Positions 48,443 to 60,426 of a stretch of 64,000 bases of DNA are shown here, in pieces. The stretch is from the NCBI GenBank assembly GCA_901472505.1, contig LR590468.1:3509501-3573500 (forward strand), written 5' to 3'. A program made the position numbers and the translations under genes. This stretch comes from Proteus vulgaris. GTDB lineage: Bacteria; Pseudomonadota; Gammaproteobacteria; Enterobacterales; Enterobacteriaceae. The notes beneath the pieces were generated by a model. The model was not told where the DNA came from, ran no database searches, and saw nothing but the letters and a program-made list of their open reading frames with translations. Every line of letters begins with the position of its first letter. The stretch's first letter is position 1.

Positions 48443-48508
48443 TGAGGGTTTACCACTATATCCTATCATTTTCACTGATGAGAGTTGTTATGTGAGAATG
48501 ATAAATCA

Positions 48509-50899
48509 ATGAAAAAAACAGAAAAAAATCAAGAAAACAATGGGATGACATCTCTAAGTCGTCGCCATTTTGTTCAAACAAGTGCAGCATTGGTTTCTGT
48601 GCCTTTTTTCGCACGAAATGCACACGCTAATTCAGATAAAAGTTTATCTATTGCGCAAAATGATGAAGAACCCGCTACGGTTGTTGCTACATGTAGCACT
48701 TTTGACTGTGGTGGTAAGTGTGATATTCGTGCACATATAAAAGAAGGGATTGTTACTCGTATTACCACTAGACCTGATAATGAATTAGATGAAGCTATGC
48801 CAATTATGAGGGCATGTGTGCGTGGACGAGGTTACCGTAAATTTTCTTATCATGCTGATAGATTGAAATACCCTATGAAAAGGGTCGGTAAACGTGGTGA
48901 AGGTAAATTTGAACGTATTTCATGGGATGAAGCGACAACGCTTATTGCAGAAAATATTACACGTTTAACTGAAAAACATGGAGCCGCAAGTCGCTTTTTA
49001 ACCGTTAATACCGCTGTAACAGGGGGGATCTTCTCTGGTGATACTATGATGAAGAAACTCTTTAATTTAACAGGTGGATACTTACCTTATTATCATTCTG
49101 TCAGTTTAGGGAATACAGTCAAAGTAACACCTTATACTTACGGTATATCAAAAACGGGAAGCTCACTCGATACCCTTGAAAACACACCTTTAGTCATTTT
49201 ATGGGGTCATAACCCCAATGAAACTATTTTTGGTCATACAAACCATTATTTTCAAAAAATGAAAGATAAGGGGACTAAGTTTATTGTTGTCGATCCTCGT
49301 TATTCGGATACTGCTCAATCTCTTGCTGATCAATGGATCCCACTCTTACCAACAACAGATAATGCCTTAATGGATGCAATGATGTATGTCATTGTTACCG
49401 AAAATCTTCATGATAAACCTTTTATTGATAAGTATGTTGTTGGTTTTGATGAAGAGCATATGCCAGAAGGTGTTCCCGCTAATGAGTCATTGGTTGCTTA
49501 TTTAACCGGTAAAAAAGAGGGGATAGAAAAAACACCTGAATGGGCGGAGAAAATCACAAAAGTACCCGCAAATACCATTCGTCAACTTGCACGCGAATAT
49601 GCCATGACGAAACCCGCCGCCTTAATTCAGGGGTGGGGGCCTCAACGTCATATTTGTGGCGAGCGTAGTGCTCGAGGCTCGACGTTATTGGCTGCAATTA
49701 CAGGAAATGTAGGTAAGAAAGGTGCGTGGGCAGCGGGTTACGGCGGTATTGGTAATCGCCAATCTATACGTGGACCTAATATCGGTGAAAATCCAATTAA
49801 AGCACAAATCTCCATCATGAATTGGATGCAAGCGGTTGATGATGCAAGCAAAGTACGTACTGAGGATGGTCTTTTAGGTGTTGATAAACTTGATACCAAT
49901 ATCAAGATGATTTTTTCTTTAGCAGGTAACTATTTAGTCAACCAAAACCCTGATGTTAATGCAGCTGCTAAATTATTAGCAGATGAATCAAAAGTCGAAT
50001 TTATTGTTGCTAGCGACTTATATCTCTCTCCCTCTGCAAAATATGCGGATCTTGTTTTACCTGAAACCAGTTTTTTAGAACGTTGGAACATTGGTAATAC
50101 ATGGGGCACAGGAAATTATTTCCTTCTATCTGAAAAAGTTGTTGAACCCGCTTTCGAACGTCGTTCTGATTATGAATGGATAACAGACGTAGCAGAAAAA
50201 ATGGGAGTAAAAGACGCTTTTACTGAAGGTAGAAGTGAAAAAGAGTGGATTGCCTACCTTGTTGATACAAATAAAGAGCGCTTCCAAGATAGATCCGATT
50301 TCCCTAATTTTGAGGAATTAGTGAAAACGCGTCGTTATCTTTTCAAAGATGAACCATTCATTGCCTTTGAAAAAAATATCAGTGACTTTGAAAATAATCC
50401 ATTTCCAACGCCATCAGGGAAAATTGAGATATTCTCTAAACGCCTTTACGACATGAACAATCCGGATATTCCGGCTTTATCTCACTATGTACCCGCAATT
50501 GAAGGCCCTGAAGATAAATTAACAGCAATATATCCATTACAAATGCTAACTTGGAAAGGGAAAAATCGTGCAAACTCAACACAATATGCCAACCCTTGGT
50601 TACAAGAAGCGCAACGTCAAGAAGTATGGATAAATCCAATTGATGCTGAAAATAGAGGTATCAAGAATGGTGATATGGTACGTGTTTATAACGATAGAGG
50701 GATAACTCAAATCCCTGCCTTAGTCACACAACGCATTATTCCTGGTGTTGTTGGTTTGCAAGCAGGTGCATGGTGGACACCTGATGAGGACGGAATTGAT
50801 CATGGGGGATGCCCAAATGTTTTAACATCAACACGGATGACGCCATTAGCACATGGTAACTCGCATTTAACGGTTTTAGTTGAGGTAGCCAAAGCATGA
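48509..50899 (+). CDS. dmsA: DMSO reductase-family molybdopterin catalytic subunit
   Basis: 796 residues. Twin-arginine signal SRRHFVQ at 17-23 with cleavage near AHA-NS, so the enzyme faces the periplasm. The N-terminal 4Fe-4S motif is Cys62-x4-Cys67-x3-Cys71-x31-Cys103, as in DmsA/YnfE. DRLKYPMKRVGKRGEGKFER and the bis-MGD region NYHSVS-like YYHSVSLGN follow; a Ser here would ligate molybdenum. Substrate (DMSO, TMAO, or other S/N-oxide) cannot be fixed from sequence. ATG 48509 was chosen; a TTG eight codons earlier is unlikely. It overlaps dmsB by 4 bases. Confidence 0.9.
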   Translation: MKKTEKNQENNGMTSLSRRHFVQTSAALVSVPFFARNAHANSDKSLSIAQNDEEPATVVATCSTFDCGGKCDIRAHIKEGIVTRITTRPDNELDEAMPIMRACVRGRGYRKFSYHADRLKYPMKRVGKRGEGKFERISWDEATTLIAENITRLTEKHGAASRFLTVNTAVTGGIFSGDTMMKKLFNLTGGYLPYYHSVSLGNTVKVTPYTYGISKTGSSLDTLENTPLVILWGHNPNETIFGHTNHYFQKMKDKGTKFIVVDPRYSDTAQSLADQWIPLLPTTDNALMDAMMYVIVTENLHDKPFIDKYVVGFDEEHMPEGVPANESLVAYLTGKKEGIEKTPEWAEKITKVPANTIRQLAREYAMTKPAALIQGWGPQRHICGERSARGSTLLAAITGNVGKKGAWAAGYGGIGNRQSIRGPNIGENPIKAQISIMNWMQAVDDASKVRTEDGLLGVDKLDTNIKMIFSLAGNYLVNQNPDVNAAAKLLADESKVEFIVASDLYLSPSAKYADLVLPETSFLERWNIGNTWGTGNYFLLSEKVVEPAFERRSDYEWITDVAEKMGVKDAFTEGRSEKEWIAYLVDTNKERFQDRSDFPNFEELVKTRRYLFKDEPFIAFEKNISDFENNPFPTPSGKIEIFSKRLYDMNNPDIPALSHYVPAIEGPEDKLTAIYPLQMLTWKGKNRANSTQYANPWLQEAQRQEVWINPIDAENRGIKNGDMVRVYNDRGITQIPALVTQRIIPGVVGLQAGAWWTPDEDGIDHGGCPNVLTSTRMTPLAHGNSHLTVLVEVAKA

Positions 50900-51525
50900 G
50901 TGATTTTAAAGAATATGCACCAGTGAGTGATGAACAGCTCGGTTTCTTTATTGATTCCTCTCGTTGCTCTGGTTGTAAAGCTTGCCAAGTGGCATGTAAA
51001 GATAAAAATAATTTAGAAGTCGGACGTCGTTTTCGTCGTATTTATGAAATAAAAGGAGGCGGTTTCGCACCAACAGGACAAGGTGGTCTGGTTAATAATG
51101 TGTTTGCTTATACATTAACCATTTCTTGTAACCACTGTGATTCACCTGTCTGTGTAAGAAACTGCCCAACAACGGCAATGCATAAACGAGAAGGTGATGG
51201 TATTGTTCGCGTTGATACCTCTAAATGTGTAGGTTGTGGGTATTGTGCGTGGTCATGCCCTTACGGTGCACCACAAATGAATGAAGAAACAGGACAAATG
51301 TCAAAATGTGATTTTTGTGTCGATTTACTGTCAGAAGGCAAAAATCCAATTTGTGTTGATACCTGTCCGCTAAATGCGATTAAATTTGGCAAGATAAAAG
51401 AGTTAAGAGCGAAATATGGGCATTTAAGCCAAGTTCAAGGGCTACCTGACTTTACGATGACAAATCCAAATTTAGTTATCAAACCTCATACAGGGGCGAT
51501 GAAAAAAGGAGGAGTTCAAGCATGA
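50896..51525 (+). CDS. dmsB: DMSO reductase-type iron-sulfur subunit
   Basis: 209-residue electron-transfer subunit with four 4Fe-4S sites: CSGCKACQVAC, CNHCDSPVCVRNCP, CVGCGYCAWSCPYGAP and CDFCVDLLSEGKNPICVDTCP (numbered in order from residue 23). It passes electrons from DmsC to DmsA. It overlaps dmsA (ATGA) and dmsC (ATGA), so the three are translationally coupled. Confidence 0.95.
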   Translation: MSDFKEYAPVSDEQLGFFIDSSRCSGCKACQVACKDKNNLEVGRRFRRIYEIKGGGFAPTGQGGLVNNVFAYTLTISCNHCDSPVCVRNCPTTAMHKREGDGIVRVDTSKCVGCGYCAWSCPYGAPQMNEETGQMSKCDFCVDLLSEGKNPICVDTCPLNAIKFGKIKELRAKYGHLSQVQGLPDFTMTNPNLVIKPHTGAMKKGGVQA

Positions 51526-52394
51526 ATGAATGGCCATTAGTTACCTTTACTTTATTCGTCCAAAGTTCTGTGGGTGTGACTATTTTTACCGCACTTTATT
51601 TTTGTTGGCTAGAAAAAGATATTGGTAATCAACGAGCAACGGTTGCCATGCGACCCGCTTTATTAACTGCCGCTATTTTAGGATGTTTAGGATTATTAGC
51701 ATCAACGTTACATATGGGATATCCATGGAATGCCTTTCATGCATTACGCCATATTTCTTCATCATGGTTGAGTCGTGAAATCATATTTGCTGCTGTTTAT
51801 CTTGGTGCATTATGTCTTTATACCTTGGTCGTTTTGATTAAAGGACATATGAATAAAAGTCTATTAGCGGTTATTGGTTTGCTTGGCATTATTGATATAT
51901 TTTGTATGGCATCACTGTATTACAATACCTCGATACTGACATGGATGCATATAAATACCTATTTTATGTTTATAGGTGCATTATTTGCTGCCGGTGCCGT
52001 TATTGCACTATCAATAACGGCATTTCGTATTAAAGCATTTATAAATAATGAATTAGCAAAAAAAATTGTGATAAGCGCATTAGGAATTATTTTCCTTTCA
52101 GTAACATTGCGCATGGCTGTACAACCATCCTATTTAGAATGGTTGTCATTAGTTATCTCAACAAATGATGCGATAACATTCCCTCATACGCCTATCATTG
52201 CGTATAATGAAATATTCGGATTAAGAGTATCTGCATGGATAATGTCAATAATCGGCATTTTAGTGATGGGATACAGTGTATGGAAATATCGTAATGCTGT
52301 ATTTACTTCAGGATTGTCTATGGTGTTAGCGAGTAGCGCAATAATACTGATTGCAGAAATTCTTAATCGCTTTGCATTCTTTATTGTTAAGTAG
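51522..52394 (+). CDS. dmsC: DMSO reductase-type membrane anchor subunit
   Basis: 290 residues with about eight hydrophobic helices. The N-terminus MNEWPLVTFTLFVQSSVGV and HMGYPWNAFHALRHISSSWL are the DmsC signatures. It anchors DmsAB in the inner membrane and oxidises menaquinol. The start overlaps the dmsB stop. Confidence 0.93.
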   Translation: MNEWPLVTFTLFVQSSVGVTIFTALYFCWLEKDIGNQRATVAMRPALLTAAILGCLGLLASTLHMGYPWNAFHALRHISSSWLSREIIFAAVYLGALCLYTLVVLIKGHMNKSLLAVIGLLGIIDIFCMASLYYNTSILTWMHINTYFMFIGALFAAGAVIALSITAFRIKAFINNELAKKIVISALGIIFLSVTLRMAVQPSYLEWLSLVISTNDAITFPHTPIIAYNEIFGLRVSAWIMSIIGILVMGYSVWKYRNAVFTSGLSMVLASSAIILIAEILNRFAFFIVK

Positions 52395-52408
52395 TGGAGT
52401 TGTGATGT

Positions 52409-53293
52409 ATGAGGCGTTTTATTACGATGGAGCTTCCTCCTGAACCAATTATTAATGATAAATGTGTTAGAAAACGCCTCAAACAAAGCCTATGTGATAG
52501 TTGCTCTAAAGTTTGTCCTGTGGGTGCTATCACTTTTGGTCACTTAGATGTAAAGATAGATAATGAACGCTGTTTCCAATGTGGTAATTGCCTGTTTACT
52601 TGCCCTGTAGATGCAATAGAAAATATTGCACCCCATGAAAGAACGTATCAGGATAATTATTTAGTTGTTAATCATGATGAGCCTTTAGCAAGTACAGAAG
52701 AACTATTAGTGTGGCATCGCCAATATCACATTAGAGGAATGAAAATAGCACAACCTTTAGTGGATAAATGGCTTCCTGTTTTAGCGAATTTAAATCTTCA
52801 ACTAAAAACATTACAAGAGCCTATCTGGCAATTAATGATCACTGAACCTACTGATATTGATAGTGGGCGTCGTTTTATGCTTTTTCGTCAAAAACTAGAT
52901 GAAAAACCATTAAATAAAAGTCAAGTAAGAACAGGTTTAAATGCAAGAAAACAACTGTATCCCGAAGATAGTTGGTTCCAGATTCAGTTAGATAAAGAAA
53001 GTTGTATTCTTTGCTCTGCATGCGCCAAAGTTTGTGATGAAGGTGCGATTGAACTCGAAAATAATATATTCACTCTTGATGAAAAGCGTTGTACCGGCTG
53101 TATGAATTGTGAAGTTGTTTGTTTTCCTAAATCCATTCATGTTAAAGAACGTGTCGCTAAAAATAACGAACCCATCCTTTACCATTATTATGATGCACAC
53201 TGTGAAAAATGTCGGTTAGCTTTTTTATCATGGAAGCCAGATGCAACATTGTGCCCGATTTGCATACAACATAAGAAGCAAGGTTGGTTATAA
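52409..53293 (+). CDS. Multi-cluster ferredoxin-like protein of the dms operon
   Basis: 294 residues, predicted cytoplasmic (no signal peptide). An N-terminal pair of 4Fe-4S motifs is CDSCSKVCP (residues 29-37) and CFQCGNCLFTCP (55-66). A middle domain of about 120 residues follows, without recognised motifs. A second ferredoxin pair is CILCSACAKVC and CTGCMNCEVVC, and a C-terminal CxxC...CxxC ribbon (CEKCRLAF, LCPIC) probably binds zinc. It lies 14 bases after dmsC, with GGAG upstream of ATG 52409. It may be an extra electron carrier or maturation factor for DmsA; the usual DmsD chaperone gene is not in this cluster. Family name not known to me. Confidence 0.8.
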   Translation: MRRFITMELPPEPIINDKCVRKRLKQSLCDSCSKVCPVGAITFGHLDVKIDNERCFQCGNCLFTCPVDAIENIAPHERTYQDNYLVVNHDEPLASTEELLVWHRQYHIRGMKIAQPLVDKWLPVLANLNLQLKTLQEPIWQLMITEPTDIDSGRRFMLFRQKLDEKPLNKSQVRTGLNARKQLYPEDSWFQIQLDKESCILCSACAKVCDEGAIELENNIFTLDEKRCTGCMNCEVVCFPKSIHVKERVAKNNEPILYHYYDAHCEKCRLAFLSWKPDATLCPICIQHKKQGWL

Positions 53294-53431
53294 TCTTCGT
53301 TTATCTACACTTGATTTATTGTTTACTAGATGAACTCTTTTCTTAAAACTTTAAAATAAGAAAGATAAGTGATCGAAACAGCTCAACTAGCATAACATTC
53401 TGAGAGTGGCTAAATTAAATGGGAGAATATG

Positions 53432-54448
53432 ATGAAAACTGTTTTACCTGCAAATATGTTGGAGATCGCAATTACAGAGCCCGGTGATATAGACAAGTTA
53501 CAACCTAAAATATCCCCAATTCCTTCACTTCCTCCTCATTATCTTTTAATTAAAGTTGCCGCCTCAGGTGTTAATCGGCCAGATATATTTCAAAGACAAG
53601 GTCGTTATCCTCCCCCCGCAGATGCGTCACCGATCCCCGGTCTTGAGGTTGCTGGAGAAGTTGTGGCAGTAGGTGACGGTTGCACCAAATGGCAATTAGG
53701 GGATAGGGTTTGTGCTTTAGTTGCTGGTGGGGGGTATGCTCAATATTGCATTGCACATGAAGATATCGCATTACCCTCAATGAGTTTAACGGATCTTGAA
53801 GCTGCCGCCTTGCCTGAAAATATTTTTACAGTGTGGGCTAATTTATTCCAGTTAGGTAAACTAAAACAAGGTGAATCTGTACTTATTCATGGCGGAACAT
53901 CGGGGATTGGCTCTATGGCGATTATGCTTGCTCATGCTATAGGAGCGACCGTTTATACAACGGTTGGTTCTGAAGAAAAAGCCTCTGTAGCTTACAAGAT
54001 CGGTGCTGATTATGTCATTAATTACAAACAAACCGATTTCGCTAAACAAATTCCCATTTTAACTCAAGGTAAGGGGATTGATGTTGTGCTTGATATTATT
54101 GGTGGCGATTATGTAGAGAAAAACTATCAAGTTGCGAGTAAGTTTGGACGTATTATACAAGTGGGTATGATGAAAGGAATGCCTAAAAATTTAAATATGA
54201 TGCCAATGATGATTAAACGTCTAATTCACACGGGGTCAACCATGCGTTCTCGTTCAGTAGAAGAAAAAGCACATATTGCACAAGAACTAAAACAATATGT
54301 ATGGCCATTGATTGCCGAAGGTAAGATTAAACCAATAATAAATGCCATTTTTCCACTCACAGAAGTAGGTAAAGCTCATCAATTAATGGAGTCTGGTGAT
54401 CTAATTGGTAAAGTGATGCTAGAAAACACAACTTATAACTTATACTGA
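53432..54448 (+). CDS. Zinc-independent NAD(P)H:quinone oxidoreductase, MDR superfamily
   Basis: 338 residues of the medium-chain dehydrogenase/reductase superfamily, PIG3/QOR-like. VNRPDIFQRQGRYPPP and GLEVAGEVVAVG are in the catalytic half, with the NADPH-binding GGTSGIGSMAIML near residue 150. It lacks the zinc ligands of alcohol dehydrogenases. One-electron reduction of quinones is the family activity. ATG 53432 is 7 bases from GGGAG; the ATG three bases earlier is also possible. It follows the dms operon after 138 bases without a clear terminator between, so read-through is possible. Confidence 0.88.
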   Translation: MKTVLPANMLEIAITEPGDIDKLQPKISPIPSLPPHYLLIKVAASGVNRPDIFQRQGRYPPPADASPIPGLEVAGEVVAVGDGCTKWQLGDRVCALVAGGGYAQYCIAHEDIALPSMSLTDLEAAALPENIFTVWANLFQLGKLKQGESVLIHGGTSGIGSMAIMLAHAIGATVYTTVGSEEKASVAYKIGADYVINYKQTDFAKQIPILTQGKGIDVVLDIIGGDYVEKNYQVASKFGRIIQVGMMKGMPKNLNMMPMMIKRLIHTGSTMRSRSVEEKAHIAQELKQYVWPLIAEGKIKPIINAIFPLTEVGKAHQLMESGDLIGKVMLENTTYNLY

Positions 54449-54525
54449 TGGTAAATAAGAGTATTAAATATTATTTGTTATAAGTAGTGATGTTTTTTTT
54501 GTTAAAAAAAGCGAATATTCTGAAA

Positions 54526-54557
54526 AACACATGATCAAATTATCGTGTGTTTTTTTT
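54526..54557 (+). terminator. Intrinsic terminator after the quinone oxidoreductase
   Basis: AACACATGAT-CAAATT-ATCGTGTGTT (one wobble) then TTTTTT. From 54558 to 54962 the DNA is about 80 percent AT and I see no gene or clear site in it. Confidence 0.8.
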
Positions 54558-54962
54558 ATATATTGAAGTAAAAATGAATAACAATTAAATAAATATATTT
54601 TTAATGGCATACAATATTTAATATCTATCTCTTTTAATGGATATTAGGCGATAGAAATATTTATTTATTCTGATTAAGATAGATTTAAGTATTGACCTTA
54701 GTAAAAATAATATCATATTTTCAGGAATACAACTTAAATCAAAATTGATAATAAAATAAAGAAACTAACAAATAAAACTAAATCATTTATCATTAAACAT
54801 GAAAAACTTTAGATGGAGTTGAAAAAATCTTAACTGATATCAATAAAATAAAGAAGATTCTTACTCATCATGTGGTATATCATTTGAATAGAGATTAATT
54901 ATTTACGATTAATAAACACAATTCTTATTAAAACATATAACAAAAATTTATATATAGGTGCG

Positions 54963-56801
54963 ATGATGGCAAATCATAAACAAACCTGTCTGAGTGCTAC
55001 AGAGCGTGTATACCATACCCGAACCGTTGATACCCTAGTATGTTATCATCGAGAGATGGCAAAAATATTAATGAATAGTGAGTATTGTTTTCCTAAGGAA
55101 AATAAAGTCAAAAAAAATGATAGTGATAATTTAGAGACTAAAATAAAAAATCATACGATTGAAAAAAAAGCAGTAGATAATGCTTATGACTCTATTTTAG
55201 ATACGCTGAAACAGCAAAATAATTATGCTCAATCAGATATTGAGCCTTATTTTTCCCATCATCATTCTCAAGTGATGCAATTGGCTAAATTTGGCTATCT
55301 TTCTGCGTTAGCTTACAATTCAGATAATGTTTTTAATCACCACTCACCCTTACAGATACAACAAGAAAAGAAAATTATAGATGATCTCTGTAAATTAATT
55401 GGTTTTTCATCAAAAGATGCATTTGGCCATATCACTACAAGCCATACATTAGCTTGTTATGAAATATTATGGGCGCTTAGAAATTTAAAAACATTACCAA
55501 TGGCGATTGCTCGTCATCCAAAGTCACGAGATTTAGTTGCAGATAAAAAAGCATTTGAGTTATTCAATATGTCTATCTCAGATATTCTAGTAATGAGTGA
55601 GCAACTCAATAAACGTGAAATTTTTGATGATGTTAGCTATTTGACATGCCGGGGAACAGGAATGACAAAAACAATGCATTTAGGGAAATTGCTTGTTCCT
55701 GTTTCACGTTTTGAATTCTGGAAAAAAGCAATGGACATACTAGGGTTGGGATATGACAACCTTATTGCATTACCTATCGATGGTTCATTTAAAACAGATA
55801 CGGAAAAAATGCGCAGTATTGTTTTACGTCTTATTGAACAGGGGGAACCCATTCTTGGTATTATCGGCATGCTAGGATCGCCATCTTATGGCAGTATCGA
55901 TAAGCTAAAACCCCTTTTTGAATTAAGAAAAGAGTGCGAAGAAAAATACAATAATTCTTTTTATATTCATATTGATGCTTCGCAATTTGGGTATATGAAA
56001 AGCCTTTTTCTTGATGATAATCATGAGATTATACCTTATGAAATATTGTGCGAAAGATTAAAAAAAGACACACCTTTACTTGAATTAACGCCTGAAATAT
56101 ATGAAAGCGTTACACAACTTTCTCTTGCTGATTCTGTCTCTTTTGAACCTTTTCAAGCTGGTTTTTCTCCTTATCCCACAGGTGTAGTGTGTATTAAAGA
56201 TGCACGTATGAGTCGTTTTCTCACTAATCCACCGAGATTATGTCCAGAACAAGCTGATGGTGTTCCCGAAATTGACGGTATTCAATCAGCACCCGCAGTG
56301 GCTTCGATGTGGAGTGTACATCAACTCTATCCTTTCACTTTGTCGGGATATGGGAAATATGCACAAATTCAATGGGAAACCCGAGTCAAACTTGAACAAT
56401 TCTTTAATCAGGCTCAAACATTTGAAAAAGAAGGTGAGCACTATTTTATTCGCGTTCTATCCGTATCTGATTTTAATAAATTGAATTTTGCGATTGTGAA
56501 AAAAGGGAATACGTGTTTAGAAACACAAAATAATCTTAATAAAGCAATATATGAAAACTTAGTTGTAAAAAGTCATTATCGGCAAGATTTGAGCTTACTG
56601 ACACTCTGTGCTCGAAATAGTGATGATGCCCCAATGCAGTTTTGTCGTGAGTGTGATTTAGGTAAAAATGAATGGGAAACAATCAAACATTTAAGTTTGT
56701 TGCAAATCACTATAAAAAGCACACAACTAGTTGATAAAAAACAAATTGAGGCAGGATACCAATATATTAAAAAGATCGTTTTATCTGCGTTAGATCAATA
56801 G
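54963..56801 (+). CDS. Tyrosine-decarboxylase-like protein lacking PLP-binding residues
   Basis: 612 residues of the group II PLP-decarboxylase fold, closest in pattern to bacterial tyrosine decarboxylases (about 620). Matches to that family include FGHITTSHTLACYEILWALR (GHI...ANxExLW), ILGLGYDNLIALPID, GIIGMLGSPSYGSIDKL and IHIDASQFGYM. The catalytic block reads DSVSFEPFQAGFSPYPTG where active members have DPHK: Lys becomes Gln398 (CAA at 56154-56156) and His becomes Phe. The PLP-stacking His is Phe (RFEFW for KHYSW), and the phosphate loop SHTLAC replaces DGSLAN-type. Such a protein should not form the PLP Schiff base, so decarboxylation is unlikely. The frame is intact with ribosome site AGGTG. 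Role unknown. Confidence 0.85.
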   Translation: MMANHKQTCLSATERVYHTRTVDTLVCYHREMAKILMNSEYCFPKENKVKKNDSDNLETKIKNHTIEKKAVDNAYDSILDTLKQQNNYAQSDIEPYFSHHHSQVMQLAKFGYLSALAYNSDNVFNHHSPLQIQQEKKIIDDLCKLIGFSSKDAFGHITTSHTLACYEILWALRNLKTLPMAIARHPKSRDLVADKKAFELFNMSISDILVMSEQLNKREIFDDVSYLTCRGTGMTKTMHLGKLLVPVSRFEFWKKAMDILGLGYDNLIALPIDGSFKTDTEKMRSIVLRLIEQGEPILGIIGMLGSPSYGSIDKLKPLFELRKECEEKYNNSFYIHIDASQFGYMKSLFLDDNHEIIPYEILCERLKKDTPLLELTPEIYESVTQLSLADSVSFEPFQAGFSPYPTGVVCIKDARMSRFLTNPPRLCPEQADGVPEIDGIQSAPAVASMWSVHQLYPFTLSGYGKYAQIQWETRVKLEQFFNQAQTFEKEGEHYFIRVLSVSDFNKLNFAIVKKGNTCLETQNNLNKAIYENLVVKSHYRQDLSLLTLCARNSDDAPMQFCRECDLGKNEWETIKHLSLLQITIKSTQLVDKKQIEAGYQYIKKIVLSALDQ

Positions 56802-56839
56802 CAATAACAAATTTTTTGTTATTAAGAGTAATCCAACCT

Positions 56840-56883
56840 AAAAAACGAAGTAGTGAGTAATATCTCATTATCTTCGCTTTTTT
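56840..56883 (+). terminator. Intrinsic terminator after the decarboxylase-like gene
   Basis: AACGAAG...CTTCGC with an inner TGAG/CTCA stem and TTTTTT. A weaker AATAACAAA/TTTGTTATT hairpin lies at about 56802-56823. Confidence 0.75.
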
Positions 56884-57048
56884 GGTGGTTTACTATATCC
56901 ATATTCAAGTTTTTCTCAATAGAAAAGATGACGCTGTCACTTATTATTTTCACTCAATTGGTTTTTGTCATCTCTTAGCAATCATTTTTTATCTCTATTT
57001 TGATTTTTTCTTCTTTTGTTTTTATTGATAGCACATAAAAACAAACTA

Positions 57049-57067
57049 GAGAATGAGAATCATTCAT
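57049..57067. promoter_or_regulatory. Fur-box-like site upstream of nfeR
   Basis: Contains AATGAGAATCATT, close to the core of GATAATGATAATCATTATC (about 14 of 19 by eye). It is about 170 bases upstream of the nfeR start. In E. coli the related yqjH/yqjI region is under Fur control; a role here is inferred. Confidence 0.5.
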
Positions 57068-57144
57068 AATAAAAACAGTCTGTGCCTATAAGGATAATCA
57101 TAAATAAATCATCTTGTTAAAGATAAAGTCGATTTAGACATATA

Positions 57145-57217
57145 TTTAGATATATCTAAAACTTGATCATTTAGATATATCGGATTATATTGACTACATA
57201 AATTCGATATATCTAAA
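57145..57217. promoter_or_regulatory. Three GATATATC operators in the nfeR promoter
   Basis: TTTAGATATATCTAAA (57145-57160) is a perfect 16-bp palindrome. Related copies TTTAGATATATCGGA (about 57170-57184) and TTCGATATATCTAAA (57203-57217) share the GATATATC core. The centres are about 25 and 32 bp apart. A TTGACT -35-like box (57190-57195) lies between the second and third copies, so bound regulator would block it. PadR-type autorepression is the likely meaning. Confidence 0.7.
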
Positions 57218-57234
57218 ACAATGAGGGAATATTT

Positions 57235-58134
57235 ATGATGATTCGAGCATTACAGTCACTTTATCAACAACGTGCCGATAATGGTGAACATGGTAGTCAT
57301 GGTCATGGAAAAGGATGTTGTGGGGGTAAAGGTAAACAGGCACGGCACCATGAAAGCCGAAGCGAACATTGTTGTCATGGTGAACATGAGCATGGACATA
57401 AAGAACATGGAGAGTGTCGTCATGGTGAACATAGTCACGGACAAAAAGGACAGGGAGAATGCTGTCATGGTAAACATAGTCATGGACAAAAAGGACAGGA
57501 TGAATGCTGTCATGGTAAGCATGATCACGGACACGAAGGACATGGCGAATGCTGTCATGGTGAACATAGTTCAGAAGGACAAGGTAAACGACGCGGTCGA
57601 GGATGCGGTGGACGAGGTAAAGGTCGTCAATTAAAACGTATGTTTGATCATGGTGATTTGCGAGTTCTGTTACTTAGCATGATCGCGAAAAAACCGAGTC
57701 ATGGTTATGAAATTATTCGTGAAATAGATGAAGCCTCTTCAGGATTATATGTACCTAGCCCTGGTGTTATTTATCCAACATTAACACTACTTGAAGAACA
57801 AGATCTGCTAGTTGCCAGTATCGCTGAAAAAGGTCGTAAAAATTACAGCATCACACCTGAAGGTACTGCATTTTTAGCAGAACATCAGGAAATAGATACC
57901 AATATTCAAAGAAAACTGGCTTATGCGAGAGACTTGTCTCAAAACGCGGGAGGGGTTTCTGAAGAGATTGAATCTGCTGTCGGAAAATTAAAGGCGGTAT
58001 TACGCCATAAACTAGTGTTAAAAGAGCTCTCAGTGGAAAGAGCGGGACGTATTGCTTCAATTCTTAATGAAGCAGTTGAGAAAATTGAAGCTATCAATGA
58101 GGCGTTGATCTCAGAGGAAAGGGAAGATGAATAA
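57235..58134 (+). CDS. nfeR: NfeR/YqjI-type PadR-family metal-responsive regulator
   Basis: 299 residues. The C-terminal half (about 130-215) is a PadR winged helix: LRVLLLSMIAKKPSHGYEII and SPGVIYPTLTLLEEQDLL. The first about 128 residues form a His/Cys/Gly-rich arm with repeated CCHG, HSHG and GHGK. E. coli NfeR (YqjI, 207 residues) has a shorter arm that binds nickel/iron and releases DNA. This one is about 90 residues longer owing to 15-residue tandem repeats. Ribosome site GAGGGA before ATG 57235. Its usual partner gene, the ferric reductase nfeF/yqjH, is not in the window. Target regulation beyond itself is unknown. Confidence 0.88.
   Translation: MMIRALQSLYQQRADNGEHGSHGHGKGCCGGKGKQARHHESRSEHCCHGEHEHGHKEHGECRHGEHSHGQKGQGECCHGKHSHGQKGQDECCHGKHDHGHEGHGECCHGEHSSEGQGKRRGRGCGGRGKGRQLKRMFDHGDLRVLLLSMIAKKPSHGYEIIREIDEASSGLYVPSPGVIYPTLTLLEEQDLLVASIAEKGRKNYSITPEGTAFLAEHQEIDTNIQRKLAYARDLSQNAGGVSEEIESAVGKLKAVLRHKLVLKELSVERAGRIASILNEAVEKIEAINEALISEEREDE
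57376..57555 (+). repeat. In-frame 45-bp tandem repeats in nfeR
   Basis: Four 15-codon units plus a partial fifth encode variants of HGKHSHGQKGQDECC. The two central copies are nearly identical at the DNA level. They account for the unusually long metal-binding arm. Repeat number may vary between strains. Confidence 0.9.
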
Positions 58135-58908: not shown

Positions 58909-60426
58909 ATGAAAGTGAAGACATTATCTGCAGTAATAACTTTAATCCTCTCCACACCGTTATGCGCTAATGCACAAATCGACATAAGTGCTATTGAAGC
59001 GAGATTAAATGCGTTAGAACAACGTGCAAATGCGGCTGAAGCAAGAGCTGCAGCCGCAGAACAAAAAGCAGCTCGTCTCGAACAACTCATTAATTCAAAT
59101 AATGGGTCTAAAGGGAAGTCTACAAATAACGTTACTTCAATGAATATGGAGCAACGCATTGCTGTATTAGAAAAGCAATCAGATGAAGCTCAAGCCAAAG
59201 CAAATATCGCTCAGACTCAGCTAAATAAACTTCAACAAACACAGTCAATTCAGTTTGCTAAGACAAAAAATAAAGAAGGTGCAGGTTTTTTCTCTACGAA
59301 TACAAATTGGGGCGATCTCAAATTGTATGGTGATGTTGAATATAATATTGATGCAGCAAGTAAAAAAGGGCAATTAACATCAATGAGAATGATGCCCGGA
59401 AAGCAAAAAGACTTTGAAGATAATGAAAAGTGGTCACTTAATGGGCGTATTTTAATTGGTATTGATGGTGAGAGAGAATTAAAAAACGGCAATTACGCTG
59501 GTTTTCGTGTTCAACCTATGGCTGACATGACGGGTAAAATGAATCTAGATGATGCTACCTTTTATTTTGGTCAACGTAATAAATGGGAATATAAAATTGG
59601 TCGTTATGAAGCGTATGATATGTTCCCTTTAAATCAAGATACTTTCGTCGAATATTCAGGTAATACCGCAAATGATTTATATGGTGATGGTTTTGGCTAT
59701 ATTTATATGATGAAAGAGGGGCGTGGTCGTAGTAGTGATGGTGGTAGCATGATGGTTAACACTCATTACAATGACTGGTATTTTGAATTAAATGCGTTAG
59801 TTGAAGACGGAACTTCTGTTTTCAAAGATGGTGAGTATCACGGGCGTAAACTTGATAACCGTAAAAATGTTATTTATATGCGGCCTGTTATTGCATGGCA
59901 GAAAGATAACTTAACAATTGCAGGTGCGATAGACGCAAACGTAATAAGCAAAGCTTATGGTTACGAGGATGAAAATGGAAAATTCCAAGATCAATCACGT
60001 CGTACTGGTTATGGTCTAACGTTAAAGTGGGATACTTTAGCTGATGATCCTGTCAATGGCATTGTTGCAAATTTAAGTGTTGCTTATCTTGATGCTAAAG
60101 ACGAAAACGATTTTTCAATGGGTAGTAATGTGTTGTGGCGTAAATTCCAATTAGGTTATATCTATGCACATAATGATATTAAAGCTTACTATCAAACAAG
60201 CGGAAATAATGAGCAAAATGAAACCTATTTAACGCTTAATCCTGGTAAATACAATATCAATACAGTATTTGCTTCTTATGAACTGCCTAATATCTTGGAT
60301 ATGGATAATTTCAAAACCTATTTAGGTGCTTATTATTCGCGGATAGATGGCAAAGACGAGATAAATGTACATAGTAGTGATAAAGATCGTTACGGTGCCC
60401 GTATCCGCTTTAAATATCTATTTTAA
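58909..60426 (+). CDS. Carbohydrate-type outer membrane porin
   Basis: 505 residues. Signal peptide (1-22, CANA-QI). A periplasmic coiled coil (about 27-70; ARLNALEQRANAAEARAAAA) resembles the N-terminal extension of ScrY-type sugar porins. A beta-barrel follows (DLKLYGDVEYNID onward), ending in a C-terminal Phe (RFKYLF), the OMP sorting signal. The barrel resembles RafY-like carbohydrate porins by pattern; no sugar utilisation genes are adjacent, so the substrate is unknown. ATG with GAGGAA upstream. Confidence 0.8.
   Translation: MKVKTLSAVITLILSTPLCANAQIDISAIEARLNALEQRANAAEARAAAAEQKAARLEQLINSNNGSKGKSTNNVTSMNMEQRIAVLEKQSDEAQAKANIAQTQLNKLQQTQSIQFAKTKNKEGAGFFSTNTNWGDLKLYGDVEYNIDAASKKGQLTSMRMMPGKQKDFEDNEKWSLNGRILIGIDGERELKNGNYAGFRVQPMADMTGKMNLDDATFYFGQRNKWEYKIGRYEAYDMFPLNQDTFVEYSGNTANDLYGDGFGYIYMMKEGRGRSSDGGSMMVNTHYNDWYFELNALVEDGTSVFKDGEYHGRKLDNRKNVIYMRPVIAWQKDNLTIAGAIDANVISKAYGYEDENGKFQDQSRRTGYGLTLKWDTLADDPVNGIVANLSVAYLDAKDENDFSMGSNVLWRKFQLGYIYAHNDIKAYYQTSGNNEQNETYLTLNPGKYNINTVFASYELPNILDMDNFKTYLGAYYSRIDGKDEINVHSSDKDRYGARIRFKYLF

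What the first reader, a model, noticed from the sequence alone, without database searches (positions are those of the whole stretch)
54963..56801. Intact decarboxylase-fold gene that has lost its PLP chemistry
The 612-residue product aligns by eye along its whole length with bacterial tyrosine decarboxylases, but every PLP contact I can place is altered. The Schiff-base Lys is Gln398 (EPFQ for DPHK), the ring-stacking His is Phe (RFEFW for KHYSW), the phosphate loop SHTLAC replaces DGSLAN-type, and the catalytic-loop Tyr is absent. The Asp for the pyridine nitrogen (IHIDAS) remains. With an unbroken frame, this looks like a retained pseudoenzyme, perhaps a regulator, ligand sensor or partner of an active decarboxylase elsewhere. 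The comparison sequence is from memory.
Basis: partly seen in the sequence, partly recalled or inferred. Interest (0 to 1): 0.75.

Follow-up and report, generated by a model that had tools for sequence, protein, structure and literature searches.

The report
DisA: a dead decarboxylase controlling swarming
In Proteus bacteria the gene disA, known as a brake on swarming and annotated as a tyrosine decarboxylase, appears to be a former enzyme whose cofactor machinery is gone in every species examined, so it probably works as a regulatory protein and not by making an amine.

Summary
ORF 54963-56801 (612 aa) is the Proteus orthologue of P. mirabilis DisA, labelled "swarming inhibition tyrosine decarboxylase". 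It keeps the tyrosine-decarboxylase (TDC) fold, but the Schiff-base Lys is Gln398, the ring-stacking His is Phe250, phosphate-site Gly and Ser are His161 and Ile440, the Thr touching O3 is Pro307, and the catalytic Tyr is lost from a shortened loop. Gln398 is fixed in 20 of 20 Proteus genomes; all 31 relatives found outside the disA clade have Lys. The gene is under purifying selection (median dN/dS 0.086). New here: disA lies in the chromosomal neighbourhood where five non-Proteus genomes carry an intact TDC, directly after the same gene in three. It looks like the positional orthologue of an active enzyme. The permease linked to three of those TDCs is missing beside disA, and no Proteus genome has a second TDC. 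The most likely reading is a TDC turned non-enzymatic swarming regulator, against the decarboxylase model in print. Caveats: new basic residues (K506; K585, R in one row) occupy substrate-pocket positions; PLP binding is not excluded; catalytic death and mechanism are inferred, not assayed; the two primary DisA papers could not be read.

The parts
54963..56801 (+). disA orthologue, 612 aa, TDC-fold protein without the PLP lysine
   Evidence: (72% identical to P. mirabilis DisA P0009)
56154..56156 (+). codon CAA, Gln398, at the Schiff-base lysine position (LbTDC K392)
55710..55712 (+). Phe250 at the PLP ring-stacking His position (LbTDC H241)
55443..55448 (+). His161-Thr162 at the phosphate-site Gly158-Ser159 (residue 162 is T in 16, I in 3, V in 1 of 20)
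55881..55883 (+). Pro307 at LbTDC T298 (contacts PLP O3); P in 19 of 20, S in 1
55974..55976 (+). Asp338, the retained pyridine-nitrogen aspartate (LbTDC D328)
56220..56276 (+). shortened catalytic-loop region (residues 420-438) without the catalytic Tyr (LbTDC Y420); residues 422-441 have pLDDT under 50
56280..56282 (+). Ile440 at the cross-subunit phosphate Ser440
56478..56480 (+). Lys506, K in 22 of 22 DisA rows, at pocket Met505 (M in 29 of 29 TDC rows): a new pocket lysine
56715..56717 (+). Lys585 (K in 21, R in 1 of 22 DisA rows) at pocket Met588 of LbTDC (M in 27 of 29 TDC rows)
54830..54885 (+). conserved block 78-133 bp upstream of disA (20-base windows 96-99% over 20 Proteus); its 22-bp core has no second copy in the genome within 3 mismatches; no match above shuffles upstream of 5 Lys-TDC genes; probably promoter or operator
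54522..54555 (+). terminator-like hairpin after the quinone-oxidoreductase-like gene, before disA
53429..54448 (+). quinone-oxidoreductase-like gene (name recalled), upstream neighbour in 20 of 20 Proteus and in 3 of 5 Lys-TDC loci
56802..57234 (+). gap where 3 of 5 Lys-TDC loci carry a 402-407 aa tyrosine-permease-like gene; no significant remnant downstream of disA in 20 Proteus loci
57235..58134 (+). PadR-like gene (name recalled) with His-rich insert, downstream neighbour in 19 of 20 Proteus loci (the other ends at a contig end)

Best explanation
The ORF is disA. It most likely descends from an ordinary PLP-dependent tyrosine decarboxylase of the same chromosomal neighbourhood. On the Proteus lineage it lost the residues that hold and use PLP, it has no linked permease, it has its own conserved upstream block, and it has been kept by selection as a non-enzymatic regulator. 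It most likely lowers swarming by binding a partner in the flagellar activation step (the FlhD4C2 complex or a factor acting on it) and not by making phenethylamine or tyramine. Shown here by sequence: residue losses, genus-wide fixation, selection, fold, shared locus with Lys-TDCs, absence of another TDC. Inferred: loss of decarboxylase activity. Inferred more weakly: action by protein binding, and the partner.
Against: No assay was possible. Mutant structures that lack the Lys still hold PLP (7cwz K392A, 6ldr K245A), and a plant TDC H203F mutant was solved with PLP and Tyr (8x0o) (titles), so PLP binding is not excluded. New bases K506 and K585 lie at substrate-pocket positions. Phenethylamine is reported to inhibit swarming and flhDC expression (PMC7142476, passage), which suits an amine-making DisA. 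Pocket positions are only modestly more conserved than the rest in DisA (28 of 40 against 239 of 477, Fisher p 0.02, relatedness ignored). PLP- or substrate-contact columns are not significantly enriched among changed TDC-invariant columns (8 of 10 against 82 of 149, p 0.19): DisA has changed almost everywhere. Two of the five Lys-TDC loci also lack a linked permease.
Confidence: 0.7

Rival explanations
1. DisA is still a PLP enzyme with altered chemistry, holding PLP non-covalently or through K506 or K585, and makes phenethylamine or a related compound as the published model proposes.
For: Mutants lacking the Lys, or with His>Phe, can hold PLP (7cwz, 6ldr, 8x0o; titles). K506 and K585 are new bases at pocket positions. 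D338 and Tyr404 are kept. Phenethylamine is reported to inhibit swarming (passage).
Against: The Lys, stacking His, cross-subunit Ser and catalytic-loop Tyr are gone in all 20 Proteus genomes and the O3-contact Thr too (P in 19, S in 1). In LbTDC single changes at His241 or Tyr420 abolish or nearly abolish activity.
Confidence: 0.1
2. DisA is a ligand sensor: the old active site now binds an aromatic amine or amino acid, and binding switches its regulatory activity.
For: The pocket is remodelled and largely frozen: 28 of 40 pocket positions are invariant in 21 DisA rows, many at residues never seen in 29 TDC rows (F250, E251, Q341, E395, Q398, K506). Phenethylamine affects swarming.
Against: No ligand data. 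The enrichment is modest (p 0.02, relatedness ignored). The AF2 model carries no ligand and has a weak loop.
Confidence: 0.2
3. DisA is a catalytically dead subunit that modulates an active decarboxylase, like the trypanosome AdoMetDC prozyme.
For: Precedent exists (PMC5201418, start of abstract in a search listing). The genome encodes two other group II decarboxylases with Lys.
Against: No second TDC in 20 of 20 Proteus genomes. The two others are a glutamate decarboxylase and a distant enzyme below the cut-off of every NCBIfam model that it matched. DisA reportedly acts in E. coli too (reference title).
Confidence: 0.05
4. The gene is a decaying remnant with no function.
For: Long joining branch. 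A 355-aa C-terminal ORF exists in some P. mirabilis sequences (P0011).
Against: Open in 20 of 20 genomes, low dN/dS, conserved upstream block; a role in swarming is published (titles).
Confidence: 0.02

Closest known systems
DisA of Proteus mirabilis (Stevenson and Rather 2006; Stevenson et al. 2013; seen only as references)
   Same: Same gene: 72% identity to P0009, which a source names DisA, and the same gene order in P. mirabilis ATCC 29906 (L060).
   Different: Titles and database names call it an amino acid or tyrosine decarboxylase; the sequence says most of the PLP machinery is gone, in P. mirabilis too (P0009, L023).
Tyrosine decarboxylase of Providencia-, Photorhabdus- and Xenorhabdus-like genomes
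   Same: Same chromosomal neighbourhood, about 33% identity, same fold family.
   Different: They keep Lys, His and the loop Tyr; 3 of the 5 loci have a linked permease.
Lactobacillus brevis TDC (5HSI/5HSJ) and Enterococcus faecalis TDC (7CWX/7CWY)
   Different: Active PLP enzymes; DisA departs from most of the cofactor contacts.
Dead decarboxylase relatives that regulate: trypanosome AdoMetDC prozyme (PMC5201418, listing) and ornithine-decarboxylase antizyme inhibitor (recalled)
   Same: An enzyme fold kept for regulation after loss of catalysis.
   Different: Other folds and partners; the prozyme activates its active paralogue, whereas Proteus has no second TDC for DisA to act on.

Membership tests
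Group II PLP decarboxylase fold (PF00282, PF21391) | profile and fold match | tested here: met
Group II PLP decarboxylase (as active enzyme) | Schiff-base lysine | tested here: not met
   Gln398, 20 of 20 genomes; an alternative lysine (K506, K585) could not be tested
Group II PLP decarboxylase (as active enzyme) | ring-stacking His | tested here: not met
   Phe250, 20 of 20
Group II PLP decarboxylase (as active enzyme) | pyridine-nitrogen Asp | tested here: met
   Asp338, 20 of 20
Group II PLP decarboxylase (as active enzyme) | catalytic-loop Tyr | tested here: not met
   I, L or V at the Y column of 22 DisA rows; loop shortened
Group II PLP decarboxylase (as active enzyme) | decarboxylase activity, PLP content | not testable with these tools
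   needs purified protein
TIGR03811 tyrosine decarboxylase equivalog | score above curated cut-off 905.3 | tested here: not met
   274.1 bits. Lys-TDCs P0012, P0026 and P0040 also miss it, at 654, 659 and 840, so this alone is weak
DisA orthologues | sequence orthology and synteny | tested here: met
   one match in each of 20 genus genomes; upstream neighbour 20 of 20, PadR-like neighbour 19 of 20, the missing one at a contig end
DisA orthologues | inhibits swarming | not testable with these tools
   published for P. mirabilis, known here by titles and database name only
Pseudoenzymes | catalytic residues lost, gene retained under purifying selection | tested here: met
Pseudoenzymes | absence of activity shown by assay | not testable with these tools
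   no assay

The most novel reading that the evidence does not exclude
The enzyme that once made an aromatic amine has become its receptor: DisA's remodelled active site (F250, E251, E395, Q398, K506, K585) binds phenethylamine or a related aromatic metabolite without PLP, and the bound form blocks the flagellar activator. That would explain why phenethylamine and DisA are both reported to inhibit swarming although DisA seems unable to make the amine.
Probability: 0.2. Interest if true: 0.85.

Novelty: new variant of a known kind. Interest (0 to 1): 0.62.

Why it matters
DisA is cited as an amino acid decarboxylase, and phenethylamine is cited beside it as an inhibitor of swarming. If DisA cannot use PLP, that link is wrong or indirect, the database name is wrong for the genus, and the question of how DisA stops flagellar gene activation becomes directly testable as protein or ligand binding. 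The locus also offers a case of a metabolic enzyme turned regulator, with apparently intact relatives in the same chromosomal neighbourhood for comparison.

Tried and rejected
Local sequencing error or local mutation: rejected, Q398 is CAA in 20 of 20 genomes. Degenerating pseudogene: rejected by dN/dS and open frames. Heteromer with an active TDC: no second TDC in 20 of 20.

Rcs-box idea: inside the conserved upstream block, 54850-54863 resembles a RcsAB box (consensus recalled) with 3 mismatches, but such matches are no more frequent than chance (16 found, 15.2 expected), so it is not claimed. The upstream block is not the only conserved stretch: 54726-54745 reaches 97% and the 20 bases ending at the start codon 100%; other windows lie at 67-94%. 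Rfam on 54400-57300 gave two matches, both under their gathering scores and of eukaryotic RNA kinds, taken as chance. Permease remnant downstream of disA: no hit better than E 1.2. IQ-TREE codon runs printed no omega, so only NG86 pairwise values are used; 37 of 190 disA pairs and 36 of 190 neighbour-gene pairs fell outside 0.05<dS<1.5 and were dropped. In the tree, P0011 and P0016 (fragments) were left out; the tool warns that the long DisA branch meets the long P0040-P0042 branches, so only the unity of the DisA clade is used, not its exact sister, and the branch length is read with care because the midpoint root cuts one branch in two (4.12 and 0.39). In one search P0042 and P0016 were dropped, leaving 29 TDC rows, and P0001 and L004 are the same protein from the same gene (22 rows); removes the duplicate (21 rows). 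The linked-permease question was asked genome-wide in the window's own genome alone; in the other Proteus genomes only the DNA after disA was examined.

Papers: ten searches. None of the passages or listing lines that I saw notes the missing lysine of DisA; most listed papers were seen only as listings. The two primary DisA papers are not held, so I cannot say whether they noted it. PMC7027876, PMC7142476, PMC6914683, PMC9861413, PMC13285125, PMC8909232, PMC8125934, PMC8234057, PMC11697180 and PMC4904194 were seen as passages only; the 'disa' matches in PMC7027876, PMC6914683 and PMC9861413 were other words.

Full report
What it is. The window lies on a one-contig genome of 3.92 Mb (G000) whose disA relatives are Proteus. 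ORF 54963-56801 (+), 612 aa, is open under the bacterial code. Among its nearest relatives is P0009, 72% identical, which a source names 'swarming inhibition tyrosine decarboxylase DisA [Proteus mirabilis]'. Named genome contigs hold the same gene in P. mirabilis ATCC 29906, P. vulgaris, P. penneri, P. hauseri, P. myxofaciens and other Proteus (11 loci). [quoted passage not shown] Both were seen only as references; neither is held. From memory, unverified, their model is that DisA makes phenethylamine from phenylalanine and that this amine, or a related one, blocks flagellar class 2 activation.

The chemistry is not. PLP contacts of L. brevis TDC were taken from PMC4904194 (passages) and placed with the alignment printed. 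Lys392 is Gln398; His241 is Phe250; Thr298 is Pro307; Gly158 is His161; Ser159 is Thr162; cross-subunit Ser440 is Ile440; Asp389 is Glu395; Ala330 is Ser340; Asp328 is kept as Asp338. Catalytic Tyr420 falls in a shortened loop where 22 DisA rows carry I, L or V. The paper states that most His241 mutants lost all activity, with H241F among those made, and that Y420A and Y420F had no measurable activity. Loss of Lys, His and Tyr together makes ordinary PLP decarboxylation very unlikely. One caution: Lys-to-Ala mutants of TDCs have been solved with PLP bound (7cwz, 6ldr), and a plant TDC His-to-Phe mutant with PLP and tyrosine (8x0o) (titles), so these changes do not by themselves prove absence of PLP.

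It is fixed. All 20 genomes held for the genus carry one full-length match without internal stops and no second TDC. Gln398, Phe250, His161, Ile440 and Glu395 are the same in 20 of 20, and the codon at 398 is CAA in 20 of 20. The protein search found 41 relatives at E 1e-10 or better, and the same 41 with an alignment query at E 1e-30. With the query, 11 proteins have Q (the query, nine full-length disA-type hits, one 355-aa fragment) and 31 have K.

It is under selection. Pairwise NG86 dN/dS has a median of 0.086 (range 0.041-0.168; 153 of 190 pairs with 0.05<dS<1.5), against 0.064 for the neighbouring quinone-oxidoreductase-like gene (154 of 190). Forty positions around the TDC active site are invariant more often (28 of 40) than the rest of the core (239 of 477) in 21 DisA rows, Fisher p 0.02 without correction for relatedness. 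This is weaker than in 29 TDC rows (22 of 40 against 106 of 477, p 2.5e-5). Against a special loss at the cofactor site: of 10 PLP- or substrate-contact columns that are invariant in TDCs, 8 changed in DisA, but so did 82 of 149 other invariant columns (p 0.19). DisA has changed widely, the catalytic site included. The branch joining DisA to the TDCs is very long (4.12 plus 0.39 changes per column on the two sides of a midpoint root). DisA is 33% identical to the Enterobacterales TDCs, while these are 43% identical to two more distant Lys-TDCs, which points to fast change on the DisA side.

Where it came from. A search of 198 genomes of the family (two of them Proteus) gave matches in 47, but outside Proteus only five were long (query residues 94-612, 35-37% identity); the other 40 genomes had only short stretches, as expected of other decarboxylases. 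All five long relatives keep DPHK, KHYSW and the loop Tyr, and all five lie in the neighbourhood of disA. In L063 and L064 the order is pntB - uspE-like - fnr-like - qor - TDC - tyrosine-permease-like - PadR-like. L065 has a dms-type reductase, then qor - TDC - permease. L066 and L067 have TDC beside a relative of window gene 51522-52394, then the fnr-like and uspE-like genes, without qor or a linked permease. These gene names are recalled from the look of the sequences; the matches to window ORFs are. In the window the order is pntB - uspE-like - fnr-like - dms-type operon - qor - disA - PadR-like. By shared words L063 is nearest a Providencia protein, L065 Photorhabdus, L066 and L067 Xenorhabdus; the genomes themselves are unnamed. 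The three genomes with a linked permease hold a second close copy elsewhere (61-64%); the window's genome holds one close copy, 63% identical, far from disA, and no significant remnant follows disA in 20 Proteus loci. Two Lys-TDC genomes also lack a linked permease, so its absence alone does not mark loss of activity. Providencia is reported to make tyramine (PMC8234057 and PMC11697180, passages; these passages do not name the gene). disA is thus best read as the positional orthologue of an amine-making enzyme.

Its promoter. A terminator-like hairpin follows qor at 54522-54555, so disA is probably transcribed on its own. A block at 54830-54885 is 96-99% conserved over 20 Proteus species (a second stretch at 54726-54745 reaches 97%). 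Its 22-bp core has no second copy in the genome within 3 mismatches, and the block had no match above shuffled sequence upstream of the five TDC genes. Control of the gene may have been rewired.

How it most likely works. A fold kept intact, an active site changed and then largely frozen, its own conserved upstream block, and reported regulatory effects in both Proteus and E. coli fit a protein that acts by binding and not by catalysis. The likeliest target is the FlhD4C2 step (recalled as the activator of the 'class 2' genes named in the 2013 title). This step is inference. A second possibility deserves testing: DisA carries new bases K506 (Met505 of LbTDC) and K585 (Met588; R in one row) at positions that the LbTDC study mutated around the active site, together with E251 and E395. 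These could be salt bridges closing the cavity, a new ligand site, or, least likely, an alternative anchor for PLP. The tools here give no coordinates to decide.

Novelty. Enzyme-derived regulators are a known kind. A group II PLP decarboxylase turned regulator, in a gene whose published name assumes catalysis, looks like a new variant. None of the passages and listings seen from the ten paper searches notes the missing lysine, but most papers were seen only as listings and the two primary papers could not be read.

Noticed in passing
57235-58134 (+): PadR-like regulator next to disA has a His-rich N-terminal insert in Proteus; the counterparts in L063 and L064 (186 and 177 aa) are much shorter. 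It may be a metal-responsive PadR protein (recalled resemblance to YqjI).
   Followed up: partly
L002 (G000:C1 about 1.096 Mb): A second group II decarboxylase of 471 aa with its Lys (DFHKWGY), below the cut-off of each of the six NCBIfam models it matched, so its substrate is unclear.
   Followed up: partly
48485-53293 (+): A molybdopterin-reductase-like (dms-type, name recalled) operon lies between the fnr-like gene and qor in the window; its first three genes were not found there in P. hauseri (L058) and P. myxofaciens (L059), which keep the last gene.
   Followed up: partly
P0011 (protein database): A 355-aa C-terminal disA ORF standing for 21 sequences in P. mirabilis: some strains may carry a broken or differently called disA.
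   Followed up: no
58909-60426 (+): The porin-like gene after the PadR-like gene gave no match at this place in P. mirabilis ATCC 29906 (L060) but is present in the five other Proteus loci listed.
   Followed up: no
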